Source: Antedon mediterranea (taxonomy: Eukaryota > Echinodermata > Crinoidea > Comatulida > Antedonidae). Taken from it: a stretch of DNA of 64,000 nucleotides. The notes below the pieces were generated by a model. The model saw only the letters and a program-made list of their open reading frames with translations. It ran no database searches and was not told the DNA's origin. The stretch covers positions 23,282,101 through 23,346,100 of the forward strand of contig NC_092677.1 of assembly GCF_964355755.1 (NCBI RefSeq), given 5' to 3'. Shown here piece by piece: positions 14,884 through 53,838 of this stretch; the stretch's first letter is position 1; the number at the start of each line of letters is the position of its first letter. The position numbers were made by a program, and so were the translations under genes.

Positions 14884-15072
14884 AGCTTTGTCTACACTAT
14901 CAAACCATGGAGGTCAAACATAAATAAATAATTTTTTACCTCCATGATCAAACTTTATGTGACGAAAAAAATATGATGTGCCCATATATGGACATGATGA
15001 CATCATATCACTACCATATTTGGGCATGTCGCACTTATTTTATCAAACTAGTTTGATATTGTAGACAGAGCT
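14884..15072. mobile_element. Palindromic MITE with AGCTYTGTCTAC ends
   Basis: The left end AGCTTTGTCTACACTATCAA and the right end GTTTGATATTGTAGACAGAG are inverted repeats about 20 bases long bounding 189 bases. The interior has nested palindromes including GTGCCCATATATGGACATGA. Flanks suggest TTAA/TAAA but the target site is not certain, so I do not assign a superfamily. A partial relative lies at 24,543-24,712. Confidence 0.65.
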
Positions 15073-24542: not shown

Positions 24543-24712
24543 TGGTATGTCTCACTATCAAACTTTATGTGACAAAAAATGTGAAGTGCCCATATATGGA
24601 CATGATGATGTCATATCACTATCATATTTGAGCATATCACTACCATATTTGAGCATATCACCCCCCATATTTGGGCACATCACACTTTTTGTCAAGCTAG
24701 TTTGATATTATC
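24543..24712. mobile_element. Truncated relative of the 14.9 kb MITE
   Basis: It shares TATCAAACTTTATGTGACRA, GTGCCCATATATGGACATGA and CTAGTTTGATATT with 14,884-15,072. The outer GTCTAC ends are reduced, and an internal CATATTTGAGCATATCAC unit is repeated. Confidence 0.55.
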
Positions 24713-30784: not shown

Positions 30785-31266
30785 TACCTAAATAGCCATT
30801 AGTGATTACAACTATAAGAAATTTGAAAAAAAAAATACTAGGCCTAATAATAAAGTTAAAACACTACTAACACTTAGGCCATAAAATGGTCTGCCTCGGG
30901 GAGTTTCATAATGCCTTCCTGAACCCACCCTGATCATCCCATGGCATGGGCCCTGTTAAGAAAATGTCGCACACTCACAATCGATCACTGGATGGTGGTG
31001 TCATTCATCGGACCTGCACAAAGTCAAATTAAATTTAGCATTTTTTTCAAAAAAGCATACTCAAAAGTTCTATAAATAATAGTAAATAAAACTTACTTGA
31101 TCAGATATTTGTCTTGATAATGATATGACTATGACACAGGTAGTATCAAAGAACGGGATTAGGCCTACAATCAGTACGTCACTAGCTAAGAATTGGTATG
31201 ATAGTCTGCTGCACTGCACGCTTGCTGTACTACAAATTTATTATTGTGTACCTGGAAGATTATCCT

Positions 31267-31297
31267 CCATATATGGAAACTGCCAAACCATATATGG
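31267..31297 (+). promoter_or_regulatory. Paired CArG boxes, first promoter unit
   Basis: Two CCATATATGG boxes at 31,267-31,276 and 31,288-31,297, starts 21 bases apart. Both match CC(A/T)6GG, the site bound by SRF/MADS-box factors. Pairs at the same spacing occur at 31,968, 45,687 (degenerate) and 49,929. Function is inferred. Confidence 0.5.
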
Positions 31298-31967
31298 TTA
31301 AAGCTATAGGTGGCGCTGTATCATAACAAAAGCACGTGCGCATACAATGTTATTGTTGTATGTGTACTGTATGCAAAACAGCAAAACAATTGTAGTTCTA
31401 AGCCTATAGCTTAATTTTGCTTTGTGAAATTGTGTATTTATTATTTTTCTCCATGGTTGTAGTACAGTGTATAACAACCATGTAGCGATTTTGTAGATTA
31501 AGGCATCCGCTTCCGACATTCTTTGGCATTGTTGTCAAATCTTTGGCAAGGCCACATGGATTACACTGTACTGTAGTAGTCTATTTAGGCATACTTGCTT
31601 GGGAGTTTCATAATGCCTTCCTGAACCCACCCTGATCATCCCATGGCATGGGCCCTGTTAAGAAAATGTCGCACACTCACAATCACTGGATGGTGGTGTC
31701 ATTCATCGGACCTGCACAAAGTCAAATTAAATTTAGCATTTTTTTTCAAAAAAGCATACTCAAAAGTTCTATAAATAATAGTAAATAAAACTTACTTGAT
31801 CAGATATTTGTCTTGATAATGATATGACTATGACACAGGTAGTATCAAAGAACGGGATTAGGCCTACAATCAGTACGTCACTAGCTAAGAATTGGTATGA
31901 TAGTCTGCTGCACTGCACGCTTGCTGTACTACAAATTTATTTAATTGTGTACCTGAAAGATTATCCT

Positions 31968-31998
31968 CCATATATGGAAACTGCCAAACCATATATGG
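31968..31998 (+). promoter_or_regulatory. Paired CArG boxes, second promoter unit
   Basis: CCATATATGG at 31,968-31,977 and 31,989-31,998, 21 bases apart, in the second unit of the tandem duplication and about 400 bases before the copy 1 start codon. Confidence 0.5.
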
Positions 31999-32387
31999 TT
32001 AAAGCTATAGGTGGCGCTGTATCATAACAAAAGCACGTGCGCATACAATGTTATTGTTGTATGTGTACTGTATGCAAAACAGCAAAACAATTATAGTTCT
32101 AAGCCTACAGCTTAATTTTGCTTTGTGAAATTGTGTATTTATTATTTTTCTCCATGGTTGTAGTACAGTGTACAACAACCATGTAGCGATTTTGTAGATT
32201 AAGGCATCCGCTTCCGACATTCTTTGGCATTGTTGTCAAATCTTTGGCAAGGCCACATGGATTACACTGTACTGTAGTAGTAGCTGTTTAGGCATACTTG
32301 CCTGCCATTAAATAAAAACGACGCGATATTGCAGCAACACGTTAACGCCCATAGTCTTGAGTTGTACATCCAATTATCTGATACAAA

Positions 32388-35300
32388 ATGCATGTTTTTG
32401 TTGGTAAGTTTCAGCATAAATAAGATAGACTCTATAACTAATGCCTTGTTAAGTCTGTCTACAAACATAGGGCCCCATAGTATTGCAGACACACACATTA
32501 CTATTAAATGTCGATCAAAGTAGAAAGAAGACAAGTGCGTTGGAATTTCGTTTTTGCAGGAGTATTCATATAGGCAGCTAGAGTAAATTACGACCTAATT
32601 TTATTTGAAACAAATTAAGTATTTTAAATTCATACATTATTGAGTGTTAGGCTACACATTTTAAATACCAAAACCAGCAGACTTCACTAACATTATTTAT
32701 GGTGATTTTTTTTTTTCTTCCTACAGCTGGTGGTAGTGGATTCGTTGGATCATCAGTTTGTAAACTTTTACAAGAAAAAGGTCACACTTGGACTATTATT
32801 TCTAGGTCCACTGGTCCAAACAAAGTCTCATGGGTAGTAGAACATTTTATCAATATTCGACTCAACAATTCATGTTAAGGAAAACAAGGGAAGGAACGTA
32901 CAAATAGTGAATGAAGTATTGAAATATAACTTCTCTAAGTTAGACCAATGCCAAAAGGATCTTTCTTCTATAAACAGTGTTATATTGTTATTGTTGTTCA
33001 GTAGGGCTATTAGGCTACTATTGTTATTTTGTTATTTCTTATAATGGTTTACCATGTGTACAACTGGCTGTGGTAGGCAAAAGATATAATTTGGTTGAAG
33101 ACTTTTGAATATAAAATGTGTGACTCGCATCCAGATTGTTTAAATAATATAGTCAAATATTGGCAGAAGATTATATAAGTATTCTTTTAAGTTAAATAAG
33201 TTAAATAAGGAAAATAAGGAGTGAATGAAGTGTTTCGATTTTTTATTTTTTTCTGAAATACATAATCATTGTCAGGTTGGCTGCCATAGGGAATAATTCT
33301 TCTACATTGTTGTTTTAACTATTATTATTTTGTTTATTTCGTATATAGTTTACTTGTGTAAAACAGACTGTGGAGTAGGTGCTAGATATACAATTTGGTC
33401 ATGGAGTAAAGAATATTATTATTATATATATTATTCTTTTCTTTATGATTTGGTTGAAGACTTTTAAATATAACATTTCTGACCCACTACCAGATAGACA
33501 ATCTGAAAGATTATTTCTACTAAATATGTATATTTTTTCTCTGACAGTCTGAGTTAATGGAGAATGGTTTACCAGAATGTGATGCAGTAATTAATCTAAG
33601 TGGAGGAAATCCCTTCGATCCAATGAAAAAGTAATTGAAACCACATGATGATTGACTTTTCAACCTTTTTATATATTTATCATATCATAGCAGAAGAATG
33701 ATAACAATATAAACAGGGCCTATATGAGATAATTAACAAAGTATTAATTGCAGCCAGGCTATAAATATTATGTTTGTAAAAGCAATAATATTTCTCCCAC
33801 AAGAAGGTATGGGTTGATAGAACATAATTGTGATCATTTAATACGGTGCATCTCATTGCAATAACATAAATATGATATCTGATCTACTTTCTCAGTTAAT
33901 TTAAAAACCACACTAAATATATGTAGGGTGCTAGAGTCACAGGGTTCATTAAAAACAATGATGCAACTATGTAACATTAAACATGACATCATCACTGAAC
34001 GAGTTTACAATTGTTGGCTGTTGCCAAATATGCATTAAATTGTTGGCTGCATAGAAATTGAAATTCGTTGGCAACTGAGGTAGAAAATGTAGATGTACAG
34101 TATCTTATGCAAGTAAAAGTGAGGATTTAATAACAACTTGTATCACTTTCCCAGTAAGTATTAATTCACTAAATTTGTTGTTATTACAGATGGAATGAAG
34201 AGTTTAAGGATGAGATTATCAAGAGTAAAGTAGAACCTAACTCTAATATTGCCAAGTTGATATCGGATATGAAGCAGCCACCAAAAGTATTTGTATCTGC
34301 TTCTGCAGTTGGTAATATACTATACTACTGTAACAAACTATTACTGGAATGCAAAAATGTTAATTTTGACTAATACACAATTCACACGTACACAAAATAT
34401 AAACAAATGTAACACAAATTGTTACATAGATATCTTGCATGATAGCCTTTGGAGTTGCAATGCTTTCATGTTGTTTTGTCATGGTGTAGCAATGTGTTCC
34501 TTCGAAGTTACATCTTTACAGGAAAGATTACCAACTTTTCTAGATTTTACACCGATGTAACAAAAAAATCTTTCACACATTCGTATCAAGGTTACAATTC
34601 TTCATTTGTTTCCCTTTAAGAGACAAGGTACCCTTTGACCCTATGATAGGCCTACTGTGACAAGCAAATAATTTATCATCATTTCTACAATCTAATATTA
34701 TTATTACAACTTTTGCTACAAATCCATGAAATACATAACTATTTGTTGTTGCAAGTGTACTGTATACAATTTCATACTTTACATTATGGTTGTAAGTGTA
34801 CTCAGTATGGTGGACAAAAATACAATAAAACTGCACTAACAAATTAATTGATGTTATATTTTACTTTTTATACTTTTTAATTATTTATTAGGTTACTATC
34901 CACCTTCAAGATCTGCACAGTATACAGAAGATGACCCTGCAGGAACTGGTTACTTTTCGTGTCTGAATGCCGATAGCGAAAAAGCCGCAATGCAAGCAAA
35001 GTCTGATAAAACACGAGTTGCAGTTGTAAGAATAGGTATACTGTAGCTACATTTATTTTATAAATTTGATTTTTAGGTTGACAATATATAACACCTGAGT
35101 GTGTTCTTACCATTTTATGGCTTAATTGTGTATCATTCATGTTTTTTACTTGACAGAAAAGTGATATTGCTGGATGTACTAGTTACTACTACTACTAATG
35201 GAAATTCAGCTTCTTTTAAAACAATTTTAAATGTTCAGAATTTTCTGTCGCGGGAGGGTATAACCATTTTACTCCGCATACATAAGTCTACATATTTTTC

Positions 35301-35716
35301 CCACAGGTTCTGCACTTGGTAAAGATGGCGGTGTAATCAAAGAGATGAAATTAAAATTCCAACTCGGGTTTGGAGGTGTCATTGGCTCTGGTGAACAATT
35401 CTTCCCTTGGATCCATGTTGATGACATTGCTGGCATCTTTATTCATGTCATTGAAAATGATCACGTGGAAGGAGCGCTAAATGCCGCTGCACCGGGTGTT
35501 ACAACTAATCGTGACTTCACAAAAGCATTTGCCGCCGCTCTTTGGAGACCGTCGTTCTTCCCCCTACCAGAGTTTATTGTAAAGGCAATGTTTGGCAGTG
35601 AGCGTGCAGTTGTATTTCTCGAAGGATATAATGCACAACCTAAACGAACATTAGAAAGTGGTTATACCTTCAAATACACAAGTCTCACAGATGCAATAAA
35701 TGATATTGTTTTGTAG
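32388..35716 (+). CDS. SDR39U1: Epimerase family protein SDR39U1-like, copy 1 (complete, six exons)
   Basis: Atypical short-chain dehydrogenase/reductase of the SDR39U1/YfcH (TIGR01777) family; binds NAD(P), physiological substrate unknown. Exons: 32,388-32,403; 32,727-32,833; 33,548-33,630; 34,190-34,311; 34,892-35,035; 35,307-35,716. All introns are GT-AG and phases agree, giving 293 codons, equal to the human protein as I recall it. The start is the only ATG giving the family's short MHVFV beta strand before the split codon. Visible features: Rossmann glycine motif AGGSGFVG (residues 6-13), IISRS (29-33, likely cofactor phosphate contact), INLSGGN (56-62, where the family usually has NLxGEN), KVFVSASAVGYY (101-112), GSGEQFFPWIHVDDIAGI in exon 6, and a C-terminal DUF1731-type segment with LPEFIVKAMFGSERAV. 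The substitution of Glu by Gly in NLxGEN is odd. A duplicated promoter lies upstream and AATAAA 0.5 kb downstream. Confidence 0.93.
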
Positions 35717-36212
35717 AAAGTATTTAAATCATAAGGGAAAGTGAAAATAGCAACAAAAATTAATTTCCGTAACTAACTTTTTATTATGCGCTATTGCATT
35801 GCTCAGTTTTAGAGGGCCAGTTGACAGAAAGCTGAGCCCACTCTTGGTGAATGAATGAATGGAGCCACAGTTTACATTTGCTTGATTTATTTTAAAAAAT
35901 TCAGTTTAGTAGACAGCTTTACAAATTTGTATTGATATTTTTTTATTTTCACGCTTTAAGGTAGATAATTTAGCTGTAAACGGTGTAGTTCAATTGTAAT
36001 TGTTCTTAATTTCTAATAATGAAGTAGTATCACAAAATGTGTAGCGACTTGAGTCACGTTAGTGTCGCTTCGTAGCAACTTGCATGCACGGTATCATATA
36101 GATATTTAATTAAAATTTGTGTTGTAGTATTAATCAAGCAGGACCTTTTTATCATCTTACAAAGTAATAATAATTGTGATTATATTGTATAAGGTGTATT
36201 TTATTGGGTGTC

Positions 36213-36218
36213 AATAAA
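36213..36218 (+). terminator. Polyadenylation signal of copy 1
   Basis: AATAAA about 500 bases after the stop codon, in a segment conserved with copy 2 (AATAAA at 44,835). In copy 4 the aligned bases read CATACA. Confidence 0.55.
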
Positions 36219-36780
36219 CATAATTGGCTTACTTAAAACTGTTTTGTGTCAATGATGTATGTATATTGTATATTGTTCCCAGTCCTTTCAAATGCATATG
36301 GCTAGCCTACCTATAAACCTTCTCTGGCATTTATGTATATACAATTGTAATGCAAGGTAACTATGGACTCATAAGTTTACTTATGTCTTTGTTTGTTTGT
36401 TTGTGTTCTGCAACTCGATTTTGAATAAACTGATCACCCGGTTTGAGTAAATGTTGGCCATTTATTTTTCCCTCAAATATATTCCCAATCATATTCAATG
36501 TATAATCATAACAATTCATTAGGAAAAAGTTACCATATGGTAGATAATTGTTTACTACGGCTAAAAAAATGGGTATTGGAAACTCGGACTGAGCATGCTC
36601 AACCCCAAAGTTGGAGAAAAGTAGGCACATTGGATATGTGCAATAGATAGACTTATAGCAAAGAACTAATAACACGAAGTTCTTTGCTTATAGACTTAAT
36701 TAATCAACTTATTCCATTTTATATAATATATATATAAAAAAGAATATTTTATTTTTGTGCTTTTTTGTGTTTAGTAGTAA

Positions 36781-38130
36781 ACTGAAGGTTTGAGTTATAT
36801 TATTTGCAACATTGGTAAAATAAGTATTCAATTCCTCTGCAATTATAGCAGGTTCGTTAGTGGTAGCACCGTCAATGTCACATAATTATTTAAACAGGCC
36901 TCGAATTTGGGGATTTTATGGGCAAGGCCGTTGATTTGAGGGGCACCAAGGCCAAATGGTAGGGCACCAAGGCCAAAAAATATTTTAATAACTAGGCCAA
37001 AATAAAAAATAGCTTGTTTCTGGTTGAGCGCCCGGTTGGAATTAAAAAAAAAAATTCTACCCGCAAACTTTTTTGGGGGATTTCCCCTATTCATCCGATA
37101 GCGTACGTAGTAGTAGGAGAGAACTGTCTACATCTTACGATCCATATAATAATAATAATAAATAAGGTACGATGTTTAGCGTCTACCGTCCTGTGTTGAA
37201 TGTTTCGAACAGCAAGCTACTTAGCCTAACTATTAGCTGCTAAGTAGCAGCGGACGGAGAAAACATGATACAAAAAAATGTGCTTGTAGGCCTTAACTAC
37301 AACTATTCATACACAGAGTTTTAACCACGGTAAAAATTAAGCCAATTACATTATGTTGTAGAATATAAATTATAGTTACTTTCCGAGTTTCGATTTCTGA
37401 AGCTTTTATGTTAGTATAATCCACATTTCCTGGAGTTCGGTAAAACGCGTTCGTTAATTTAGTGTATCTGTCGGCTGGATTATTGAGGTGGGTGCGATAA
37501 CATATAAATATAATATACTTCAAACGATCTTCGGTTGAGGTGCGTGCGGGGGTACGTACTTTGGTACTAAAATTTAGTACCAAAAAGTTGACACCCCTAA
37601 TTGTACACGTATAATGGACTACACCATGCTGGAACGCACAAGGTATTTTCTTATCAGAGGATGCGTGTACGTCAAAAAGAATGTTTTTTCAACGATCCTT
37701 CGTCGTAAGTACGAGAGACGTCGTGTGAAATGTCTTATCAGAGGGTGCGTGTGCGTCAAATAGATCACACACAACGTTCGTTATTCAGCGACCGTTTATT
37801 AAGATAACTTAATAATAATTAAACTAGGCCCGGGCCTAAATGATAAACGATCCGACGTGTTGCAGACAAATAAAAATAGTCATTATTTTATTTTAAAAAG
37901 ACAGGGCTGATAATTTTTTTGTTCTAAATCCGCGCCTGTATAAGCGCACAAAAAAAACAAAGCTGAACTAATGTTTTTTTTTTCAAATGTCATTAGGCCT
38001 ACAGCAACTGTAAAAAAAGTTTACACTCTACCTTATAACAGCAAAATTAACATATTCATTAAAACTGTTACCGTTAATATTAAGAATTAAAAAGCGCACA
38101 CTATTATTCATTGAGTGATAATAGTTACGA
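36781..38130. other. Inter-copy spacer with small repeats
   Basis: No gene supported. GGGCACCAAGGCCAAA occurs twice (about 36,939 and 36,963). A TCTTATCAGAGGRTGCGTGT unit occurs twice, 84 bases apart (37,649 and 37,733). A minus-strand frame at 37,293-37,583 has no recognisable product. Confidence 0.4.
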
Positions 38131-39163
38131 TAGGTCAAGGGTGATCGATTCATACCAAAATATTTTTAAAAATTAAGTAGGTCAAGTGTTATAACGTTTG
38201 TAAAAGCCAGTTACTTATTCGCCCTAGAGGGTGTAGATGCAAAAAAGTTCGCGGAACTGGGGTGGCAAATGGTAGAGTAGGTCAAGGGTCATCGATCTAT
38301 ACCAAAATATTTTGAAAATATTAAGTAGGTCAAGTGTTATAACGTTCGTAAAAGCCAGTTACTTATTCGCCGTTGAAGGCGTAGACGCAAAAAAGTTCGC
38401 TGAACTGGGGTGGCAAATGGTAGAGTAGGTCAAGGGTCATCGATCTATACCAAAATATTTTGAAAATATTAAGTAGGTCAAGTGTTATAACGTTCGTAAA
38501 AACCAGTTACTTATTCGCCGTTGAGGGCGTAGACGCAAAAAAGTTCGCGGAACTGGGGTGGCAAATGGTAGAGTAGGTCAAGGGTGATCGATCCATACCA
38601 AAATATTTTGAAAAAATTAAGTAGGTCAAGTGTTATAACGTTCGTAAAGCCAGTTACTTATTTGCCGTAGAGGGCGTAGACGCAAAAAAAGTTCGCGGAA
38701 CTGGGGTGGCAAATGGTAGAGTAGATCAAGGGTGATCGATTCATACCAAAATATTTTGCAAAAATTAAGTAGGTCAAGTGTTATAACGTTCGTAAAGCCA
38801 GGTTACTTATTTGCCGTAGAGGGCGTAAACGCAAAAAAAATTGCGGAACTGGGGTGGCAAACGGTAGAGTAGGTCAAGGGTGATCGATTCATACCAAAAT
38901 ATTTTGAAAAAATTAAGCAGGTCAAGTGTTATAACGTTTGTAAAGCCAGTTACTTATTCGCCGTAGAGGGCGTAGATGCAAAAAATTCGCGGAACTAGGG
39001 TGCAAAATGGTAGAGTAGGTCAAGGGTCATCGATCTATACCAAAATATTTTGAAAATATTAAGTAGGTCAAGTGTTATATCGTTCGTAAAAGCTAGTTAC
39101 TTATTCGCCGTAGAGGGCGTAAATGCATAAAATGTTATTGAACTTTGACCGGAAGAAGTAGAG
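38131..39163 (+). repeat. Tandem satellite, seven units of 146-148 bp
   Basis: Unit starts (TAGGTCAAGG or TAGATCAAGG) fall at 38,131, 38,278, 38,426, 38,574, 38,722, 38,870 and 39,016. Each unit has two AGGTCAAG words, ACCAAAATATTTT, GCCAGTTACTTATT, and GGAACTGGGGTGGCAAATGG. Units differ by a few bases; the last is eroded. The period equals nucleosome-core length. In three units the first word extends to AGGTCAAGGGTCA. Confidence 0.9.
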
Positions 39164-39309
39164 GAGGTCAAGGCTAACATGTTGATGCAATAACACCTCA
39201 ATTAGACAGTTATTACGTATTAAAATCTGTTTTTAAAAATATATTTGTGACTGTCCCTTTAATTAAATTTGAATAAGGAACTTAGGAACTAGTAACCAAC
39301 TTCACAGGC

Positions 39310-39712
39310 ATTAATATGGGCAGCAGTGCTGCAGGTGGGCACCAGTCGTGCATTTTTATATCTATCTAATGTTAAAGAGTTAATATGGCCGCACCAGTGC
39401 TGCAGATGGGCACCAGCCGTGCATTTTTATATCTATCTAATGTTAAAGAGTTAATATGGCCGCACCAGTGCTGCAGATGGGCACCAGCCGTGCATTTTTA
39501 TATCTATCTGATTCTGATGTTAAATTAATATTATACCTGTGCTGCAGATGGGCACCAGCCGTGCATTTTGATATCTATCTGATTCTGATGTTAAATTAAT
39601 ATTATACCTGTGCTGCAGATGGGCACCAGCCGTGCATTTTTATATCTATCTGATTCTGATGTTAAATTAATATTATACCTGTGTTGCAGATGGGCACCAG
39701 CCGTGCATTTAA
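39310..39712 (+). repeat. Tandem repeat, six units of 71 bp
   Basis: GTGCTGCAGRTGGGCACCAG occurs at 39,326, 39,397, 39,468, 39,539, 39,610 and 39,681 (GTGTTGCAG in the last), exactly 71 bases apart. Units 1-3 and 4-6 form two subtypes in the spacer (TTAAAGAGTTAATATGG versus TTAAATTAATATTATACC). A single inverted GCACGACTGGTGCCCAT lies at 40,799-40,815. Confidence 0.9.
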
Positions 39713-39974
39713 TAATGTGTACATATATCTCATAATATAGTTTATATGGGCACCATTCTTGTACGAAGTAACATATTTATGTGTCATATATCTGCAGTTC
39801 TGAATGTGAAAACAATTGGTGGGTCATTTATATTTGTTTTACATAAATACACGCCATCGTAAATTATAGATTCAATATTTCGTAATGTCATCAATAAAAA
39901 TTACTAGTTAAAACCCTAAACCATCATTATGCTAATTATAGTTACATAATAGTTAACTATCCCATGGTCTAGAA

Positions 39975-40690
39975 TTTATTTACCTCCGCCAAGGAGGTAT
40001 ATGTAATCGGTAGCGTGTGTTTGTTACTTGGCCAAATTGAAAATTGGCCAAGTATGTTGATCTGTTTGGTTTGTGTGTTTGTTTGTTTGTTTGTCATCAC
40101 TCTAGCGCTCACAGTTTTGATTCGAATGACTCCAAATTACTACCAAACATGTCACCTGGTGCAAGGACGACACCGCCCAATTTTGGTTAAATTCCGGACC
40201 ACGGTTTCAATTCTGGACCATTTAAAAAAATTATTTTCAGACCTGCTAGTGTTAAAAGATAGGACAGAATTTTTCAAAAGCCGGCGAGCAGTCTTAAAGT
40301 AACAAGTAAACTGAAATTGCATTTTCTCGAGAACTACTTGTCCAAAAAACTTCATTTTTGAACAAGAGGCAAGAGTTATAATTTGTGATTTGTAGATTTA
40401 ATGTGCACGTTTTTTGATGCGAGTAGTTTAAATTCTTTTCAAATTCACTCGTTTGATTTTCGCGTTGCTGTTCTATTGTTAGTCAACTGAAGCTATTGTT
40501 AATTGAAAGGCTTATACATAACCATTACACCAAACTCCATACACATGCTTGTAATGAAATTAGCCTAAATCACAAACAGCATTAAGACACACACAAATAT
40601 ATATATATATTTTTTTTACCGGAGAAATCTGATGTAGGAGAATTTTACAGTAGGCGGAGGTATGCCCTCTCGGAGTGGCTTTCTAGTTAG
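39975..40690. mobile_element. Inverted-repeat element with ACCTCCGCC ends
   Basis: The left end TTACCTCCGCCAAGGAGGTA and the right end GGCGGAGGTATGCCCTCTCG... carry opposed ACCTCCGCC motifs. Inside are a (GTTT)n tract at 40,075-40,095 and no transposase. Elements of this general form are widespread in animal genomes; the superfamily is not clear to me. Confidence 0.5.
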
Positions 40691-40828
40691 TAACTGTAAG
40701 CCTACGGAATCGAGAAGCTGCAGGCTGAATCGTCTTGGTCTGCTGGGTTTTGACAAATGGATATTCAAATAGTACCTCCTCATTAATATTCATAACCTGC
40801 ACGACTGGTGCCCATATAACGCTTACCC

Positions 40829-43800
40829 ACATGGATTACACTGTACTGCAGTAGTCTGTTTAGGCATACTCACCTGTTATTAAATAAAAACGACGCGATA
40901 TTGCAGCAACACGCTAACGCCCATAGTCTTGTGTTCTACATCCAATTATCTGATACAAAATGCATGTTTTTGTTGGTAAGTTTCAACATAAATAAGATAG
41001 ACTCTATAACTAAATTGCCTTGTTAAGCCTGCCTACAAACATATATTGCAGACAAACACATTACTATTATATGTTGATCAAAGCAGAAAGAGGACAAGTG
41101 CGTTGGAATTTCGTTTTTGCAGGAGTATTAATATAGAGTACATTACGACCTAATTTCATTAGAAACAAATTAAAGTATTTTGAATTCATACATGGAAGAT
41201 ACTAAATAGAATAGTGTTTATGTTTTCATGGTGTTTAATTATTTATACATTTATTTTTATTGCACCATATTCAATTGAGTATTAGGCTACACATTCAAAT
41301 ACCAAACCAGAAGACGTCACTAACTATATTATGGTAATTAGTTTTTGCTTGCTTTCTACAGCTGGTGGTAGTGGATTCGTTGAATATGCAGTTTGTAAAC
41401 TTTTACAAGAAAGAGGTCACACTTGGACTGCTGGTCCAAACAAAGTTTCATGGGTAGTAGAACAATTTATCAATATTCAACTCAACAATTCATGTTAAGG
41501 AAAATAAGGGAAGGAACGTAAAAATAGTGAATAAAGTATTGAAATATAAGTTCTCTAAAAGTTAGATCAATGCCAAAGGGATCTTTCTTCTATAAATAGT
41601 GTTACATCGTTATTGTTGTTCAGTAGGCCTAATACTATTGTTACTTTGTTTTTTCTTATGGTTTTACCAACTGGTTGTGGTAGGCACTAGATACAATTTG
41701 GTTGAAGACTTTTGAATATAAAATGTCTGACTCGCATCCAGATTGTTTAAATAATATAGTCAAATATTGGCAGTAGATTAAATAAGTATCCTTTTAAGTT
41801 AAATAAGGAAAATAAGGAGTGTATGAAGTGTTTCGATTTGTTATTTTTTTCTGAAATATATAATCATTGTCAGGTTGGCTGCCATAGGAAATCATTCTTC
41901 TACATTGTTGTTTTAACTATTGATATTTTGTTTATATTTCGTATATAGTTTTGCCTTGTATAAAACTGCCTGTGGAGTAGGCGCTAGATATACAATTTGG
42001 TCATGGAGTAAAGAATATTATTATTATATATAATATTCTTTTCTTTATGATTTGGTGGAAGACTTTTGAATATGAAATTTCTGACCCACAACCAGATAGA
42101 CAATCTGAAAGATTATTTCTACTAAATAGGTATATTTTTTCTCTGACAGTCTGAGTTAATGGAGAATGGTTTACCAGAATGTGATGCAGTAATTAATCTA
42201 TGTGGAGGAAATCCATTCGATCCAATGAAAAAGTAATTGAAACCACATAATGATTGACTTTTCAACCTTTGTATATATTTATCATATCATAGCAGAAGAA
42301 TGATAACAATATAAACAGGGCCTATATGAGATAATTAACAAAGTATTAATTGCAGCCAGGCTATAAATATTATGTTTGTAAAAGCAATAATATTTCTCCC
42401 ACAAGAAGGTATGGGTTGATAGAACATAATTGTGGTCATTAATACGGTGCATCTCATTGCAATAACATAAATATGATATCTGATCTACTTTCTCAGTTAA
42501 TTTAAAAATCACACTAAATATAAGTAGGGTGCTAGAGTCACAGGGTTCATTAAAAACTATAATAATACAACCAATAAAGGTGGTGTTTGTTCACTATGGA
42601 ATGACGCAACTATGCAACATTAAACATGACATCATCACTGAACGAGTTTACAATTGTTGGCTGTTGCCAAATATGCATTAAATTGTTGGCTGCATAGAAA
42701 TTGAAATTCGTTGGTAACTGAGGTAGAAAATGTAGATGTACAGTATCTTTCAAGTAAAAGTCAGTATTTGATAACAACTTGCATCACTTTCCCAGTAAGT
42801 AATAATTCACTAAATTTGTTGTTTTTACAGATGGAATGAAGAGTTTAAGGATGAGATTATCAAGAGTATAGTAGAACCTAACTCTAATATTGCCAAGTTG
42901 ATATCGGATATGAAGCAGCCACCAAAAGTATTTGTATCTGCTTCTGCAGTTGGTAATAATAATATACTATACTACTGTAACAAACTATTACTGGCATGTA
43001 AAAATGTTAAATTTGACTAATACACAATTCACACGTACACAAAATATAAACAAATGTAATTGTTACATACATATCTTGCATGAGAGCCTTTGGAGTTGTA
43101 ATGCTTTCATGTTGTTTTGTCATGGTGTAGCAATGTGTTCCTTCGAAGTTACATCTTTACAGGAAAGATTACCAACTATTCTAGATTCTACACCGATGTA
43201 ACAAAAAAAATCTTTCACACATTCGTATCAAGGTTACAATTCTTCATTTGTTTCCCTTTAAGAGACAAGGTACCCTTTGACCCTATGATAGGCCTACTGT
43301 GACAAGCAAATAATTTATCATCATTACTACAATCTAATATTATTATTACAACTTTTGCTACAAATCCATGAAATACATAACTATTTGTTGTTGCAAGTGT
43401 ACTGTATACAAATTCATACTTTAAATTATGGTTGTAAGTGTACTCAGTATGGTGGACAAAAATACAATAAAACTGCACCAAAAAATTAATTGATGTTATA
43501 TTTTACTTTTTATACTTTTTAAATTCTTTATTAGCTTACTATCCACCTTCAAGATCTGCACAGTATACAGAAGATGACCCTGCAGGAACTGGTTACTTTT
43601 CGTGTCTGAATGCCGATAGCGAAAAAGCTGCAATGCAAGCAAAGTCTGATAAAACCCGAGTTGCAGTTGTAAGAATAGGTATAGCTACATTTGTTTTATA
43701 AATTTGATTTTTAGGTTGACAATATATAACACCTGAGTGTGTTCTTACCATTTTATGGCTTAATTGTGTATCATTCAGGTTTTTTACTTGACAGAAAAGT

Positions 43801-45372
43801 GATATTGCTGGATGTACTACTACTACTAATGGAAATTCAGCTTCTTTCAAAACAATTTTAAATGTTCAGAATTTTCGGTCACGGGAGGGTATAACCATTT
43901 TACTCCGCATACATAAGTCTACATTTTTTTTCTCACAGGTTCTGCACTTGGTAAAGACGGCGGTGTAATGAAAGAGATGAAATTCAAATTCCAACTCGGG
44001 TTTGGAGGTGTCATTGGCTCTGGTGAACAATTCTTCCCTTGGATCCATGTTGATGACATTGCTGGCATCTTTATACATGCCATTGAAAATGATCAAGTGG
44101 AAGGAGCGCTAAATGCCACTGCACCGGGTGTTACAACTAATCATGACTTCACAAAAGCATTTGCCGCCGCTCTTTGGAGACCGTCGTTCTTCTCCCTACC
44201 AGAGTTTATTGTAAAGGCAATGTTTGGCAGTGAGCGTGCAGTTGTATTTCTCGAAGGATATAATGTACAACCTAAACGAACATTAGAAAGTGGTTATACC
44301 TTCAAATACACAAGTCTCACAGATGCAATAAATGATATTGTTTTGTAGAAAGTATTTAAATGATAAGGGAAAGTGAAAATAGCAACTAAAATTAATTTCC
44401 GTAACTACCTTTTTATTATGCGCTATTGCATTTCTCAGTTTTAGATGGGCAGTTGACAGAAAGCTGAGTCCACTCTTGGTGAATGAATGATCACAAATAG
44501 TGCTCTGTGTGGAGCCACAGTTTACATTTGATTGATTTATAAAAAATGCAGTTTAGTAGAGAGCTTTACAATTTGTATTGATATTTTTTTATTTTGACGC
44601 TTTAAGGTAGATAATTTAGCTGTAAACGGTGTAGTTCAATTGTAATCCATCATGTATAGCGACTGGAATCACGTTATAGTGTCTCTTCATGGCGGCACTG
44701 ATAACTTGCATGCAAGGTATCATATAGATATTTAAAAATTGTGTTGTAGTGTTAATCAAGCAGGACCTTTTTGTCATCTTACAAAGTAATAATAATTGTG
44801 ATTATATTGTATAAGGTGTACTTTATTGGGTTTCAATAAACATAATTGGCTTACTTAAAACTGTTTTGTGTCAATGATGTATGTATTGTATATTGTTCCC
44901 AGTCCTTTCAAATGCATATGGCTAGCCTACCTATAAACCTTCTGACATTTATGTATATACAATTGTAATGCAAGGTAACAATGGACTCAGAAGTTGTTGT
45001 TGTTGTTGTTTTTGTTGTTGTTGTTGTTGATTTGTTCTGCAACTCAATTTTGAATAAACTGATCACCCGGTTTGAGTGTATGTTGGCCATTTATTCAATG
45101 TATAATCATAACAATTCATTAGGAAAAAGTTACCATATGGTAGATAAATGTTTACTACGGCTAAAAAAATGGGTATTGGAAACTCGGACTTAGCATGCTC
45201 AACCCCAAAGTTGGAGAAAAGTAGGCACATTGGATATGTGCAATAGATAGACTTATAGCAAAGAACTAACACGAAGTTCTTTGCTTATAGACTTAATCAA
45301 CTTATTCCATTTTATATAATATATATATAAAAAAAATTTAATTTGTTGTGATTTTTTGTGTTTAGTAGTATG
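40829..45372 (+). repeat. 4.5-kb segmental duplication of the copy 1 gene
   Basis: From ACATGGATTACACTGTACTG at 40,829 to the TTTTTTGTGTTTAGTAGTA near 45,372 this block parallels about 32,255-36,780, including introns and 3' flank. Its left breakpoint falls just inside the gene's 5' region, so the paired CArG promoter was not copied. The breakpoint abuts the inverted copy of the 71-bp repeat core. Confidence 0.85.
40960..44348 (+). CDS. SDR39U1-like, copy 2 (open frame, cofactor site damaged)
   Basis: Six exons aligned with copy 1: 40,960-40,975; 41,362-41,453; 42,150-42,232; 42,831-42,952; 43,535-43,678; 43,939-44,348. Splice sites are intact and the frame is open for 288 codons. Exon 2 has a 15-base in-frame deletion that removes the end of the second beta strand with its Ser-Arg (the IISRS segment of copy 1), and the glycine motif continues as GFVEYAV in place of GFVGSSV. 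Both changes hit the dinucleotide-binding site, so cofactor binding is probably weakened or lost. INLCGGN replaces the family's NLxGEN. The usual upstream promoter with CArG boxes is missing. AATAAA lies at 44,835. This may be a young non-functional duplicate or a gene with a changed role. Confidence 0.8.
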
Positions 45373-45649
45373 TCAAACATTAAATTACATGCAATTTTTA
45401 TTTTTTTTTAATGAATATTTGACAATAAAAGTGTTTGAATTTTAAATTCTTCTTCTATGATAAAAAATAGTTTTGGCGAATATATCCGGGATATTCTGTG
45501 TTTAGATAACTTTTGTTTGTTAGTGTACGACGAAGGTTCCGGGAAATTAAGCATTTTGTTTACAAGAATGTTGGGGTATGTAGGTCTCAATAGGACCTAA
45601 ACATCGAATATGCTAAACGAGCGTCGTTTTTTGTAAGAAATATTTCTAG

Positions 45650-45745
45650 TTATTATCAAGACGTACCTGGGAGAATATCTTCCTATCCATATAAAGAAAC
45701 TACCCAACCATAATAGATGAAGATATTGGTGGCGCTGTTATTCAC
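45650..45745 (+). promoter_or_regulatory. Conserved upstream block of copy 3 with degenerate CArG pair
   Basis: ACGTACCTGGGAGAATATCT and GGTGGCGCTGTTAT match the promoter block of copy 1. At the CArG positions the sequence reads CCATATAAAG (45,687) and CCATAATAGA (45,708): the 21-base spacing is kept but each has lost one or both final G residues. Confidence 0.45.
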
Positions 45746-45819
45746 AACAAAAAATTTCAACAATCTGTGTGCGATTTTCCAATCCCATACTAGGCTAGGC
45801 TATATGATCTGATAAAAAT

Positions 45820-48800
45820 ATGAATGTATTTGTTGGTAAGATTCAATTGATTATTGACATTACACATATAATGCTAAAAATACTCTTTTTGAGTCGACAT
45901 TGCAGGCCACACCAGGCCTTTATATTATGGGTATTGGTTGTTTACCGGCCCACACTGCTGCTGCACCGTCCCAGCTAGGACTCTGTCTGGTAAGTGTAGC
46001 TAGGCCTAGCAGCACAAAACAGCCGACCTGGCTTATGAATATGAATTCATTTAATTTCAGATTTAATGCAATTTTTGTTTATAATAAAAGTTGATTTTGT
46101 TTTTCTACAGCTGGTGGTAGTGGCTTCATTGGGTCAACAGTATGTAGACATTTAAGACAACGAGGTCACAATTGGACTATTATTTCTAGGACCACTGGTC
46201 CAAACAAAATTTCATGGGTAGGGTAACAAGATTCTCATCAAACATATTTACATTGTGTTGGTGTCACTTTAATAACCAGAGTAGCCATGTCATATCATTT
46301 TTTTAAACTAAAAATTAGGGGGTGGGGCGGATTGAAAAGCAAGCCTAGCTTCTTAGCCTATATCATATATCCCCCTGTCTGCTGTGCATAATTAAGCAGA
46401 TTAAAAATTCAATTACTAGAATTTAATTCACCACCATTCCGACAGAAAAATATACATTTACAAATAAATTTTTTCGGACATTATTTATTGGCCGGAGATG
46501 CCTTTACCTTCACTAAAAGTGAGTGTATATACTCATTACTGTTTATATTGCCTGCACTACTTTGCCAGTATGCCTGTGAGAGAAGCTGTAGGGTAGGCAC
46601 TACAACATTTATAAAAATAAAATCCATGTTTTTAAAATAATAATTATACAGTATATAATCAAACTACAGGAAGATTTTTCTACTAAATAAGTAGTCTTTC
46701 TCTAACAGTCTGAGTTAATGGAAAATGGTTTACCAGAATGTGATGCAGTTATTAATCTATGTGGAGAGAATGCATTCAATCCAATGAAAAGGTAATTTAA
46801 ACCACATATAATATACTACAACTGATTGTTAAAGAGATATTCAATTTTGTATATATTATCATATAGCAGAAGAATGATAAGATAATTAGGACATCTATGA
46901 GAGAATTAACAAAGTATTGCCGCCGGGCTATAAGTATGTTCTATATTAATTATTAATAAAAACAATATCTGCCACAAGAAAATATGGGTTTATACATAAA
47001 TGTGATCATTATTATACAGTGATTGTATTGCAATAACATGAAATATGATTTCTGTTTTGTTCATTAAAATGAATTTAGTCTTGTTTATTCAACTGTCTAA
47101 AGGATGACGCAATTACATTGACTAAAACTAGATTGTTATGAAGCAATATATGGTCGATCTATTTCTCAGTTAATTTGAAAAACCAAATAATATATCTAGG
47201 CTACCATAGTCACAGGTTAAAAAAACTACTTTAAAAATCAATGAAGATGTTATTTGTTTAACTATGGAATATTGTTATGCAACATTAAACATGACATCAT
47301 TTTCTGATCTTGCTACCTGCTTCATTTATTATCAATCAATGGTGAACAGACGATCGGGGCCAAGGACGATCAGGGCCACAGACGATCGAGGCCATTATAG
47401 AGACGATCGGGCCCATTTTTTTATGTGCCCGATCGTCTTATACGCTAGGCCTGATTGTCCATGGCCCCGAACGTCCACACAGTTGAGCCCGAACGTCCAC
47501 AAAGTTTGGCCCGAACCTCTGCATGCGTTGGTACCCGATCATCTTTAAAAAGGCCAGATTTTCTGACCCCAATCGTCCATCAATCCAATCAATTTACATT
47601 TTTATGCAGGTGGAATGAAGCCTTTAAAAGAGAAGTTATCCGAAGTAGAGTACAAACCACCGCTAATATTACCAAATTGATATCGGATATGAACCGGCCA
47701 CCCAAAGTATTTGTATCTGCTTCTGCAGTAGGTAATATATACAGAAATAATTATGAAAGAAATATGTGGATACCCAAAAATAAGTATTGACTCTTCACAA
47801 TTTTACTCCATGCAGGGAGTTGAACTCCCTGCTCCATGCATTGGGGCTTCACTTTGTAGATTGTACCTGACGTTAGTTAAGGTACCCTGTTTAGTGGTGA
47901 TAATATAATAACATACACAAGTGGAATGTATCTTTGCCAGTTAATTTGTTAAATTCATGTCACAGTGGCGTAACGGCTAAGAGCATTCACAAGCTAAACC
48001 CAAAGCTTAAGAGGCTCCAACATAAGCACCCCAATGCAACTACCCAACATTGGATGGTCTCTATTAAACCAGGGTCCTTTTCCCCTCTGCGTTACACCAC
48101 TGGCTTTTCAGTAAAAGTTCTTTTAATAGTTTTATTATATGACTGTTGCAAAAAGCAACCTGTAGTGTGCATAACTGTTGTTTAAAATAACGAATTTGAA
48201 CTAAAACATTATTATTATTATATTACATATCATTATTAAATTATGTTATTAGGTTTCTATCCGCCTTCAACATCAGCAGAGTACACAGAAGGCGGCCCTG
48301 CAGGAACTGATTTCTTTGCCCGTCTGAGTGTTGATTGGGAAAATATTGCAATGCAAGCAAGGTCTGATAAAACAAGGGTTTCACTTGTCCGAATAGGTAT
48401 GTATTTATTAATAAAATGTTACTGTAATAGTTTTGTTATATAGAATCATAAGCAAAATGGTTACTGTACTGTTTTTATTTGCGTTCAATGCGTTGTCATT
48501 ATTTAATTTAAAAAAAAAAAAAAAAAAAAGGACATGGCTGTTAAAATGTATATGGGGGAGGGGGTCAAAAGCCTGTCTATCGCCCACCTAAATCTGCACC
48601 TGCTCTTGGCCTATTTAAAGCAACATGGCCTATTTAAAGTCTGATTTTATTATTCTTCATTTTTTTTTTTTTGCCAAACAATACATCTTTAATATCTAAA
48701 TTAGTGGGTGAGATTAAATTTGGATTGCATCATTAATGGAATTTTGTTGAATTTTTGTTCTGAATTAGGGGTATGATTATAGTTGAGCAAAATTTCCCTT

Positions 48801-49313
48801 TATTTTATTTCATTTATATAATTATTTCACTTCAATATCTCAACCGGTCATTTCAATCTGTTCAAAGTTCATGGAATTTAACTTTAAGTATATTTTCTCA
48901 CAGGTGTTGCTCTTGGTAAAGATGGCGGCGTAATCAAGCAGATGAAGTTACCATTTTACCTTGGGCTTGGAGGTGTCATTGGCTCTGGTGAACAATTCTT
49001 CCCTTGGATCCATGTTGATGACATTGCTGGCATCTTTATTCATGCCATTGAAAATGATAATGTGGAAGGAGCACTAAATGCCACTGCACCGAGTGTTACA
49101 ACTAATCATGACTTCACAAAAGCATTTGCCGCCGCTCTTTGGAGACCGTCGATCTTCCCCCTTCCAGAGTTTATTGTAAAGGCAATGCTTGGCAGTGAGC
49201 GTGCAGTTGTATTATTAGAAGGACAGAATGTGCAACCTAAACGAACATTAGAAAGTGGTTATACCTTCAAGTACACAAGTATCACAGATGCTTTAAAGGA
49301 TATTGTTTCGTAA
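45820..49313 (+). CDS. SDR39U1: SDR39U1-like, copy 3 (complete, six exons)
   Basis: Exons: 45,820-45,835; 46,111-46,217; 46,709-46,791; 47,610-47,731; 48,253-48,396; 48,904-49,313; 293 codons, all splice sites canonical and phases consistent. Starts MNVFV and continues AGGSGFIGSTV, with IISRT for the second strand and the family-type NLCGEN (copies 1-2 have GGN). Exon 6 begins VALGKDGG and reads LPFYLGLGGVIGSGEQFFPW, closer to the vertebrate form than copies 1 and 2. Introns have diverged strongly from those of copies 1-2. Introns 3 and 4 carry small transposon-like insertions (47.35 and 47.96 kb). This is the best candidate for the ancestral-function copy. Confidence 0.92.
47345..47580. mobile_element. 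Iterated GACGATCGGGGCC element inside intron 3 of copy 3
   Basis: The left half has four ACGATCGRGGCC units about 16-22 bases apart; the right half has a series of inverted CCCGATCGTC / CCCGAACGTCCA units. Opposed arrays of the same motif suggest a fold-back type MITE. It ends about 25 bases before the exon 4 acceptor. Confidence 0.5.
47962..48106. mobile_element. Small MITE with CAGTGGCGTAAC ends in intron 4 of copy 3
   Basis: CACAGTGGCGTAACGG at the left and TGCGTTACACCACTGGC at the right are inverted repeats bounding about 145 bases. CAGTGGCG termini are common among hAT-like and other DNA elements; superfamily uncertain. Confidence 0.45.
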
Positions 49314-49338
49314 AATGTAGACTCACACTCATCACAGT

Positions 49339-49626
49339 GACATTTTTGAAGTGATACTAATGTAGGTGAAACAAATTGTACACTGATAAAAACCAAGATA
49401 TGGCAGCAGTGTGGTTAGCACTGTGCACAAGCTTTATGATATTGGACAGACAGCCTGGCAGATCTTGATGCTAATTAGGAGGCAGACGATTACCATAGCA
49501 AACAATTAAATTACCACTTGATTCATTTATCTCTAAAGTTATAAGTGATAATGATCATTTACAGTCTCTTGAAAGATAGTGTGAGATTTAATGTCTACAT
49601 CTGTCTGTACTTCTTCATCTTATACA
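49339..49626 (+). repeat. 288-bp duplicated segment, unit 1 (3' of copy 3)
   Basis: Nearly identical to 55,920-56,207, 6,581 bases away. It begins 26 bases after the copy 3 stop codon, so it probably forms part of that gene's 3' UTR or flank. Confidence 0.8.
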
Positions 49627-49754
49627 TATATACTTATTTATCTAAATATAGGCCATATGATCTGACTGGAGCCAATTTATTTTTTAGGGTCTCCCTGGAC
49701 CCCCATCCCATATGCGTGTCCCTGTAATGATAAATATCACAGGCATAACTCCAT

Positions 49755-50170
49755 CATAGATGTCATTAAATTTAGCATTTTATCAAAAAGATCTAGTCAG
49801 AAGTTATATAAAAAATATTAATAAAGTTACCGAATTTGCAGTTTTGATATTGTTGTATCAAAGAACATGATTACTCTCTCTATCTGTATGTTACTGTACT
49901 ATATCTTGTTAACCTGTGAGATTATCTTCCATATAAGGAAACTATAACACCATAAATGGATAAAGCTAGATGTATCACAACAGAATATTATTTACAATGC
50001 ACATATGCAAATCTGGAAAAATTCTTCCTAAATTATTATTATATTTTTAAACAATATATTCATTTTTGTTTGTTTATTTTAACAAGTACACCAACCTTGT
50101 GCTATTTGTATCCATTTCCAAGTGTCTTTGGCATTGTTGTCAAATCTTTTGCAAGGCCACATGGATTACT
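49755..50170 (+). promoter_or_regulatory. Upstream block of copy 4 with paired CArG boxes
   Basis: It parallels the copy 1 promoter unit, from TTAAATTTAGCATTTT to GGCAAGGCCACATGGATTAC-like sequence. CCATATAAGG (49,929-49,938) and CCATAAATGG (49,950-49,959) both match CC(A/T)6GG and start 21 bases apart. They differ in their centres from copy 1, so the consensus, not the exact sequence, has been kept. Confidence 0.5.
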
Positions 50171-51085: not shown

Positions 51086-52200
51086 GAATCCCATCATAAT
51101 TCATGCTACCAGACCAATAGAGACATAATCCCACTTTCTCAACGTTTAAAGTAGGCCTAATGTTTGTCATATATTTTGGTGGTCAATCACTTATTCAAAT
51201 CATGATGATACTGATAGTGATTTTGTTTTCTGTCTACAGCTGGTGGTTCATATATAGTTTTACCTTGTGTGAAACTGACTGTGGAGTAGGCGCTAGATAT
51301 ACAATTTGGTTGAAGACTTTTGAATATAATATTTCTGACCCACACCCAGATAGACAATCTGGAAGATATTGTCTACTAAATAGGTATATTTTTTCTCTGA
51401 AAGTCTGAGTTAATGGAGAATGGTTTACCAGAATGTGATGCAGTAATTAATCTATGTGGAGAGAATGCATTCAATCCAATGAAAAGGTAATTGAAACCAC
51501 ATATACTACTGATTGTTAGTAAATTTGTATATATTTATCATATCATAGCATAATAAATGATAACAAGATAATTAGGACATCATGAGATAATTAACAAAGT
51601 ATTGCCGCTGGGGTATAAGTAGGCTATGTTCTATATTATAGAGTAAACACAATAATACACTGCCACAAGAAAATATGGGTTAGCATTACAACATAAATGT
51701 GATATTAATATACAGTGATTGTCATCTCATTGCAATAACATGAAATATGATTTGTTAGTTAATTTGAAAACCAAATAATACAACTAGGTTGGCATTAAGA
51801 TATTTATTTGCTATAGAGTGTAATTGTGACATGACATCATTAACGAACGAGTTTACAATTTGTTTGCAGTTCCAAATTATGCTTTAATATAAGCATTTAA
51901 AAATGGGAGGCTGCATAAAAATTGAAATTCATTCGCTGATAACCAAGGACATGAAAAAAATGGCTTGGAATTTAAATCAACTTGCATCGCTTTCCCAGTA
52001 AATATTAACAATGATTGGTTAATATTTATTGGGAAAGCGATTTTTATTAATACAGATGGAACCTGGAGATGGAATGAAGAGTTTAAGAACGACGTTATCA
52101 AAAGTACAATAGGAACCAACGCTAATATTACCAAGTTGATATCGGATATGAACCAGCCACCCAAAGTATTTGTATCTGCTTCTGGAGCAGGTAATATTAT

Positions 52201-52290
52201 ACAGGCCTTGTCTTTTAAGGCGAGCGAGTGCGATCACCCACCTAACACACTCCTAAAATTCCAAATGACACGTGATGCCTAATTAACCAA
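52201..52290 (+). repeat. Dispersed GAGCGAGTGCGATCAC repeat, copy in intron 4 of copy 4
   Basis: CAGGCCTTGTCTTTTAAGGC and GAGCGAGTGCGATCACCCAC recur inverted at about 63,492-63,664 and in a weaker form at 54,050-54,170. The element type is unknown. Confidence 0.5.
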
Positions 52291-52837
52291 TCAAATTGCA
52301 AGAATAGTGTAGATTCCAAATGTGCATTTTTACAAATACATGTACAAAACCAATGTAAGAAAGTATTACATATGGATATTTTGTGTGATTTAATGCTTTA
52401 AATCAGTGAATATATCGAGTTCCATCCCTTTTAAATGCCATTTATTAATAGACTGAAAAGTCACAAAATACATAATTATTTTTAGTGTATACAATTGTCA
52501 TACTTTATATCCTTTTATATCTTATTACTTACTCATAAATTTTGGTTGCAAGGATAACCCTTAAGTTGTATAAAAAAATAGGACTAAAAAATAAATTGTC
52601 TTATTTTACTTTTTATACTTTAAATTATTTCTTTATTTGACATGTGATATCATTATTAAATTATGTTATTAGCTTACTATCCGCCTTCAAGATCTGCAGA
52701 GTATACAGAAGATGACCCTGCAGGAACTGGTTTCTTTTCGTGTCTGAATGCCGATAGCGAAAAAGCTGCAATGCAAGCAAAGTCTGATAAAACACAAGTT
52801 GCAGTTCTCAGAATAGGTATAGCTACATTTATTTTGT

Positions 52838-53118
52838 CAATAGAATACATAATAATAATTTCCTGGATTTATATAGCCCCTCTAAGCGCTCAACATTATT
52901 ACCCCAGTCATTTTGGATCAAACACGTATGGAAAAATACTCCCATACTGCAGCTAGTAATCAGCGCAAAGTTGTGTCTTGACCTAACCGGGTACCCATTT
53001 ATACACCTGGGTGGAGAGAGGCAAATCTTGCCTAAGGATACAAGCGAGAGTTTGATTCGAACCTTGATCTCACCATCAGTAGTCGAACGCACTGCGTCAC
53101 ATGCCCTTTTAGGTTGGC
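52838..53118 (-). repeat. tRNA-derived SINE, family B, minus strand
   Basis: This is the reverse complement of the 50.8 kb element: AATAATAATTTC tail at the left, AACCGGGTACCCATTTATAC in the body, and TTTGATTCGAACC (inverted B box) at 53,051-53,063. It lies in intron 5 of copy 4. Confidence 0.85.
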
Positions 53119-53838
53119 ACCTGAGTATATCCTTACCATTTGTTCACATCATCACCACAGTTATCCCAGTTGCATAAAGTCGTTCTTTACTCAAAATGGA
53201 AGGCATTGCAGCGGATTAACTGAACAAAATAATTATTCTTTTTTATTTGTTGAATGGTGAATTATTTTTTTCATTGAGAGATTGATTTAATTTGTTAATT
53301 AGAACTTTCAACTCATGAAATACTCTCATTATTTTTTTTTACAAAATGTTTGAGTGCAATAGTTCAATGATTAAGAATTATAATATGATAATATAAAATG
53401 ATAACACTGTATTATAAACAAATAAAACGATAATTCTCACACACACACACCGGTACTGTTCTTGGCAAAGATGGCGGTGTTATCAAAATGATGAAGTTAC
53501 CATTTTACGGGCTTGGAGGTGTCATTGGCTCTGGTGAACAATTCTTCCCTTGGATTCATGTTGATGACATTGCTGCCATCTTTATTCATGTGGAAGGAGC
53601 ACTAAATGCCACTGCACCGAGTGTTACAACTAATCGTAACTTCACAAAAGCATTTGCCGCCGCTCTTTGGAGACCGTCGATCTTTCCCGTTCCTGAATTT
53701 ATTGTAAAGGCAATGCTTGGCAGTGAGCGTGCAGTTGTATTATTAGGACAGAATGTGCAACCTAAACGAACATTAGATAGTGGTTATACCTTCAAGTACA
53801 CAAGTATCACAGATGCAATCAAGGATATTGTTTTGTAA

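What the first reader, a model, noticed from the sequence alone, without database searches (positions are those of the whole stretch)
31267..49959. CArG box pairs at a fixed 21-base spacing upstream of the SDR39U1 copies
Seen: CC(A/T)6GG pairs start 21 bases apart at 31,267/31,288, 31,968/31,989 and 49,929/49,950; at copy 3 (45,687/45,708) the spacing is kept but both boxes are degenerate. Copy 4's boxes differ in core sequence from copy 1's yet still match the consensus. 21 bases is two helical turns. Known: SRF binds CArG boxes, often paired. Inference: a two-site SRF module, doubled at copy 1, decayed at copy 3 and absent at copy 2.
Basis: partly seen in the sequence, partly recalled or inferred. 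Interest (0 to 1): 0.62.

Follow-up and report, generated by a model that had tools for sequence, protein, structure and literature searches.

The report
Paired CArG boxes inherited through gene duplication
The 21-base-spaced CArG box pairs upstream of four tandem SDR39U1 gene copies are real, but they are one ancestral stretch carried along by gene duplication, they have diverged about as fast as neighbouring non-coding DNA, and nothing yet shows that they work as an SRF switch.

Summary
The pairs are at the stated coordinates, but they are not independent. Two of the three perfect pairs are one pair, copied in a 701-bp tandem duplication that is 99% identical. The others are paralogous. Copy 2 lacks the pair because its homology to copy 1 begins at 40,827, downstream of where the pair lies. 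Across copies 1, 3 and 4 the pair's block diverges at the same rate as other alignable non-coding DNA (Fisher p 0.29, 0.88, 1.0). The state of the pair does not follow the state of the gene: copy 4 keeps a perfect pair but is a pseudogene, while intact copy 3 has two off-consensus boxes. A transposon origin is excluded for this pair at the search sensitivity available. The concern was reasonable: a MITE explains most of 5,186 genomic places with this arrangement, against 35 for a composition control. Outside repeats, 21-bp pairs occur at about chance frequency. SRF is encoded, and actin promoters here carry CArG boxes, so binding is possible but unshown; one actin-like gene has a non-MITE pair at exactly 21 bp. 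Orthologues could not be tested. Verdict: a real but ordinary inherited upstream segment; the SRF-module reading is possible (about 0.2), not supported.

The parts
31267..31297 (+). CArG pair, copy 1 distal: CCATATATGG-AAACTGCCAAA-CCATATATGG
31968..31998 (+). CArG pair, copy 1 proximal, identical to the distal one; 420 bp before the exon-1 ATG at 32388
30899..31601 (+). First arm of the 701-bp tandem duplication holding the distal pair
   Evidence: 693/699 identical
31602..32304 (+). Second arm of the 701-bp tandem duplication holding the proximal pair
45687..45717 (+). Off-consensus pair of copy 3: CCATATAAAG-AAACTACCCAA-CCATAATAGA; box 2 aligns with a 1-base deletion
49929..49959 (+). CArG pair of copy 4: CCATATAAGG-AAACTATAACA-CCATAAATGG
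31244..31331 (+). Paralogous block around the pair, alignable to 45663-45752 (76%) and 49906-49968 (81%)
40827..45370 (+). Copy 2 duplication unit; matches copy 1 from 32253, downstream of the pair, so the pair was not copied
32388..35720 (+). SDR39U1 copy 1, six exons, intact (Epimerase PF01370 + DUF1731 PF08338)
40960..44352 (+). SDR39U1 copy 2; exon 2 has a 5-codon deletion and GGSGFVG changed to GGSGFVE
45820..49318 (+). SDR39U1 copy 3, six exons, intact reading
51236..53842 (+). SDR39U1 copy 4, pseudogene: no exon 1 found, exon 2 cut after about 12 nt, exon-6 acceptor AG changed to CG
14883..15074 (+). MITE copy (CCATATATGG 14982, CCATATTTGG 15014); unrelated to the SDR39U1 pairs
24553..24712 (+). 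Second MITE copy (CCATATATGG 24590, CCATATTTGG 24665), with degenerate 21-bp tandem units

Best explanation
The ancestral SDR39U1 upstream region held two CArG-consensus decamers 21 bp apart inside an ordinary stretch of about 90 bp. Tandem gene duplications passed that stretch to copies 1, 3 and 4. A later duplication made copy 2 from copy 1 with its left end downstream of the pair. A recent 701-bp duplication doubled the pair at copy 1. Since then the stretch has drifted at about the rate of other non-coding DNA. Copies 1 and 4 still match the consensus, copy 3 has one or more changes in each box, and copy 4 is itself a pseudogene. Shown here: the paralogy, the duplication boundaries, the absence of measurable extra constraint, and the absence of a MITE relationship at the sensitivity available. 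Inferred: the founding pair may have arisen by chance; SRF could bind it, but nothing shows that it does or that SDR39U1 depends on it.
For: The duplication arms are 99% identical. Copy 2 homology starts at 40827 and matches 32253. Block versus non-coding divergence is 18.8% vs 24.2% (1-4), 16.9% vs 18.0% (1-3) and 17.9% vs 18.1% (3-4), with p 0.29, 0.88 and 1.0. Under neutrality, at least two of three lineages keep a perfect pair with probability 0.08-0.11. Copy 4 is a pseudogene with a perfect pair, and copy 3 is intact with an imperfect pair. After repeat types are set aside, about 7 of 41 restricted 21-bp pairs remain genome-wide, against 2 (this pattern's control) to 9 (35/4) expected. 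The pair's block is found nowhere else in the genome.
Against: The constraint test has low power (20 box positions). Copies 1 and 4 differ at only 2 box positions against about 5 expected (p 0.19), both A/T to A/T changes that keep the consensus, while the spacer differs at 4 of 11. In one search the non-coding rate comes from BLAST-alignable columns only, so it may understate neutral divergence. A non-MITE actin-like promoter in this genome has four CArG boxes, two of them 21 bp apart, so a two-turn pair can occur at a plausible SRF target.
Confidence: 0.7

Rival explanations
1. A working two-site SRF module: two SRF dimers bind the same face of the helix two turns apart and drive SDR39U1 copies 1 and 3.
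For: An SRF gene with a MADS box very like the vertebrate one (from memory) is present. All perfect boxes fit the consensus. Actin genes here carry upstream CArG boxes, and one actin-like gene has a 21-bp pair. Copy 3's first box, CCATATAAAG, is identical to a box reported within an SRF-bound region of the mouse Srf promoter (PMC4524680).
Against: No constraint above non-coding background. The pair is perfect at a pseudogene, imperfect at an intact gene and missing at copy 2. SDR39U1 is not an SRF target that I know of (own knowledge; no SRF-SDR39U1 paper was seen among the 12 listed of 78). CArG matches vastly outnumber bound sites (PMC4524680: about 3.1 million matches in mouse against 1,540 selected SRF sites).
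Confidence: 0.2
2. The block is part of the core promoter and box 1 is really a TATA-like element (TATAAAG in copy 3, TATAAGG in copy 4, TATATGG in copy 1), with CArG resemblance incidental.
For: Copies 3 and 4 read TATAAAG and TATAAGG; in copy 3 the element lies about 130 bp before the ATG. The block lies upstream of exon 1 in copies 1 and 3.
Against: No transcription start data. The distance to the ATG differs (copy 1 proximal about 420 bp, copy 3 about 130 bp). TATAAA is common in this AT-rich DNA.
Confidence: 0.1
3. The pair was brought by the MITE or another dispersed repeat.
For: The MITE carries the same 21-bp CArG arrangement at thousands of places and two copies lie in this window.
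Against: The SDR39U1 spacers differ from the MITE units at 6-8 of 11 positions. No MITE homology was found at 31.2-32.0, 45.7 or 49.9 kb. Genome searches with the copy-1 and copy-4 blocks found only this locus, though those searches did not even recover the paralogous blocks, so old repeats could be missed.
Confidence: 0.03

Closest known systems
Paired CArG boxes / serum response elements bound by SRF (e.g. ACTA2, ACTG2 promoters)
   Same: Two CC(A/T)6GG decamers upstream of a gene in a genome that encodes SRF.
   Different: No occupancy, expression or constraint evidence. Spacing is 21 bp; reported ACTG2 boxes sit at -313, -254, -82 and -45 (PMC4524680).
MADS tetramer recognition of CArG pairs in plants (floral quartets)
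   Same: Two boxes separated by a whole number of helical turns.
   Different: Plant MIKC proteins; preferred spacing usually 3-7 turns (PMC10178880); not shown for animal SRF.
MITE with TIR AAGCTCTGTCTACACTATCAAACT and an internal 21-bp CArG-bearing tandem unit (this genome)
   Same: CArG consensus boxes 21 bp apart.
   Different: Different spacer, terminal inverted repeats, thousands of copies; not homologous to the SDR39U1 block.

Membership tests
SRF-bound CArG module | Boxes match CC(A/T)6GG | tested here: met
   Perfect at copies 1 and 4; each box of copy 3 off consensus
SRF-bound CArG module | Cognate factor present in the genome | tested here: met
   SRF MADS domain in two exons at C10:16.109 Mb; MEF2-type at C11
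SRF-bound CArG module | Boxes more constrained than surrounding non-coding DNA | tested here: not met
   Fisher p 0.19, 1.0 and 0.75 for boxes; 0.29, 0.88 and 1.0 for the block; low power
SRF-bound CArG module | 21-bp pairs over-represented outside repeats | tested here: not met
   About 7 non-repeat places against 2-9 expected
SRF-bound CArG module | Pair kept upstream of orthologues in other species | not testable with these tools
   No other animal genome is held
SRF-bound CArG module | SRF occupancy and regulatory effect | not testable with these tools
   Needs ChIP, EMSA or a reporter assay
MITE carrying CArG units | Terminal inverted repeats and MITE spacer around the pair | tested here: not met
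   No BLAST homology; spacer 6-8 of 11 mismatches
MITE carrying CArG units | Dispersed copies of the block | tested here: not met
   Only this locus found
SDR39U1 (atypical SDR) | Epimerase domain followed by DUF1731 | tested here: met
   PF01370 E 1.2e-16, PF08338 E 9.1e-14 on the copy 1 protein
TATA core promoter | TATA element about 30 bp before a mapped start | tested here: inconclusive
   TATA-like words are in box 1, but no start is mapped

The most novel reading that the evidence does not exclude
In this animal SRF uses a two-turn (21-bp) CArG pair as a real module at some promoters (an actin-like gene and SDR39U1), and the MITE with the same geometry has seeded thousands of potential SRF sites across the genome.
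Probability: 0.06. Interest if true: 0.65.

Novelty: new member of a known kind. Interest (0 to 1): 0.14.

Why it matters
As a regulatory claim it matters little as it stands: it shows how tandem duplication makes one motif arrangement look like several independent occurrences. If the pair did work, it would tie an SDR enzyme of unknown substrate to SRF signalling. The more useful by-product is the finding that a MITE carries a 21-bp CArG unit and accounts for most of 5,186 CArG pairs at exactly this spacing, so any motif-spacing analysis in this genome must mask it first.

Tried and rejected
MITE origin of the pair: rejected. Independent recurrence of the pair at each copy: rejected, paralogous. 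Conservation as evidence of function: tested, not significant. Mitochondrial COX1 search to identify the organism: no match. Rfam and tRNA scans: nothing. RNA folding of the 45-bp conserved piece: no stable structure. Pairs in the upstream regions of four other actin-family genes: no CArG boxes there; those cuts begin at a partial first coding match, so a far upstream promoter could be missed.

Full report
Observation. The window holds 13 perfect CArG decamers against 6.4 expected. Four of them belong to two MITE copies (14.9 and 24.6 kb) and four to one duplicated pair, so the apparent excess is not independent evidence.

The locus. The window is C8:23282101-23346100 of an unnamed animal genome of 354 Mb. 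It holds four tandem copies of an SDR39U1-type gene (Epimerase plus DUF1731), and a search with the last exon found no other copies. Copies 1 and 3 read intact. Copy 2 has a five-codon deletion in exon 2 and has changed GGSGFVG to GGSGFVE. Copy 4 lacks a detectable exon 1, is cut about 12 nt into exon 2, and has CG in place of the AG acceptor of exon 6, so I call it a pseudogene.

History of the pair. The stretches 30899-31601 and 31601-32304 are a tandem duplication (693 of 699 aligned bases identical), which explains the doubling at copy 1. Copy 2's homology with copy 1 starts at 40827 and matches 32253. That is about 255 bases downstream of the proximal pair, so the pair was never included. 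Copies 1, 3 and 4 share a block of 63-91 bp around the pair at 75-81% identity, and pieces of the rest of the upstream region also align between copies 1 and 4. Majority comparison of the three copies suggests an ancestor with two perfect boxes, about CCATATAAGG and CCATAAATGG (inference).

Is it constrained? Synonymous divergence between copies is modest (dS 0.15-0.24 among copies 1, 3 and 4), so 75-81% identity is what drift gives. Divergence in the block equals that of aligned non-coding DNA for all three pairs of copies (p 0.29, 0.88, 1.0), and the boxes alone give p 0.19, 1.0 and 0.75. Under a simple neutral model, at least two of three lineages keep a perfect pair with probability 0.08-0.11. 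The test is weak because only 20 positions are scored, and copies 1 and 4 do lean towards conservation (2 of 20 box differences, both consensus-preserving, against 4 of 11 in the spacer). The state of the pair does not follow the state of the gene: perfect at a pseudogene, imperfect at an intact copy.

Is 21 bp special? Genome-wide, CCW6GG-N11-CCW6GG occurs at 5,186 places against 35 for the reversed control; at 20-bp spacing the figures are 166 and 19. In the places listed the excess is mostly a MITE with TIR AAGCTCTGTCTACACTATCAAACT and an internal 21-bp unit (CCATATTTGGGCATATCACTA or close variants), with about 2,270 first-look candidates for one copy, plus some minisatellites. A pattern restricted to spacers that avoid the main MITE forms gave 41 places. 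Most were still MITE variants or two minisatellites, leaving about 7 others (part scored, the rest judged by eye), against 2 in that pattern's own control and about 9 if the control of 35 is scaled by four. So outside repeats there is no clear excess at 21 bp.

Transposon origin. The MITE does not match the window at the SDR39U1 pairs, and the spacers differ at 6-8 of 11 positions. Searches with the copy-1 and copy-4 blocks found nothing outside this locus. These searches are not very sensitive: they missed the paralogous blocks in the same window.

Could SRF bind? Probably it could. SRF is encoded, with a MADS domain very like the vertebrate one from memory, and three of the actin genes have perfect CArG boxes within about 1.6 kb of the ATG. 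One actin-like gene has four within 210 bp, two of them 21 bp apart with a spacer five mismatches from any MITE unit. This last case is the best hint that a two-turn pair can matter here, but it is one case. Copy 3's CCATATAAAG is identical to a box listed in an SRF-bound region of mouse Srf (PMC4524680), so 'decayed' may overstate its loss. The same paper shows how weak a consensus match is: about 3.1 million CArG matches in mouse and 1,540 selected SRF sites.

Verdict. The sequence is real, its recurrence is explained by duplication, and no evidence singles it out as functional. The decisive test, orthologues, could not be run because no other animal genome is held.

Noticed in passing
14883-15074 and 24553-24712; L001-L004, L019-L048: A MITE (TIR AAGCTCTGTCTACACTATCAAACT...) carries an internal 21-bp unit with the CArG consensus CCATATTTGG; it accounts for most of the 5,186 CArG pairs at 21-bp spacing in the genome (35 in a control), and some copies have expanded the unit into longer arrays.
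   Followed up: partly
31520-31564, 32221-32265 and 50125-50169: A 45-bp non-coding piece between the pair and exon 1 is 44/45 identical between copies 1 and 4 although non-coding DNA there differs by about 24%; it occurs only at this locus and is far more conserved than the CArG block. Constraint or gene conversion.
   Followed up: partly
50780-51060 and 52849-53007: Two repeat copies in opposite orientation; the first has tRNA-like box A/B words and looks like a tRNA-derived SINE, although ARAGORN calls no tRNA.
   Followed up: no
30567-30697: 18-bp minisatellite, 7.3 copies, 96% matches, just left of the 701-bp duplication.
   Followed up: no
L077 (C4:4531000-4537040), about 660-863 bp before the first coding match: Actin-like gene with four perfect CArG boxes in about 210 bp, two of them exactly 21 bp apart and not from the MITE.
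   Followed up: partly
G000 C2:1222006-1222285 and C9:5139782-5140190: Two minisatellites with a 21-bp period whose unit contains CCATATAAGG / CCTTATATGG.
   Followed up: no
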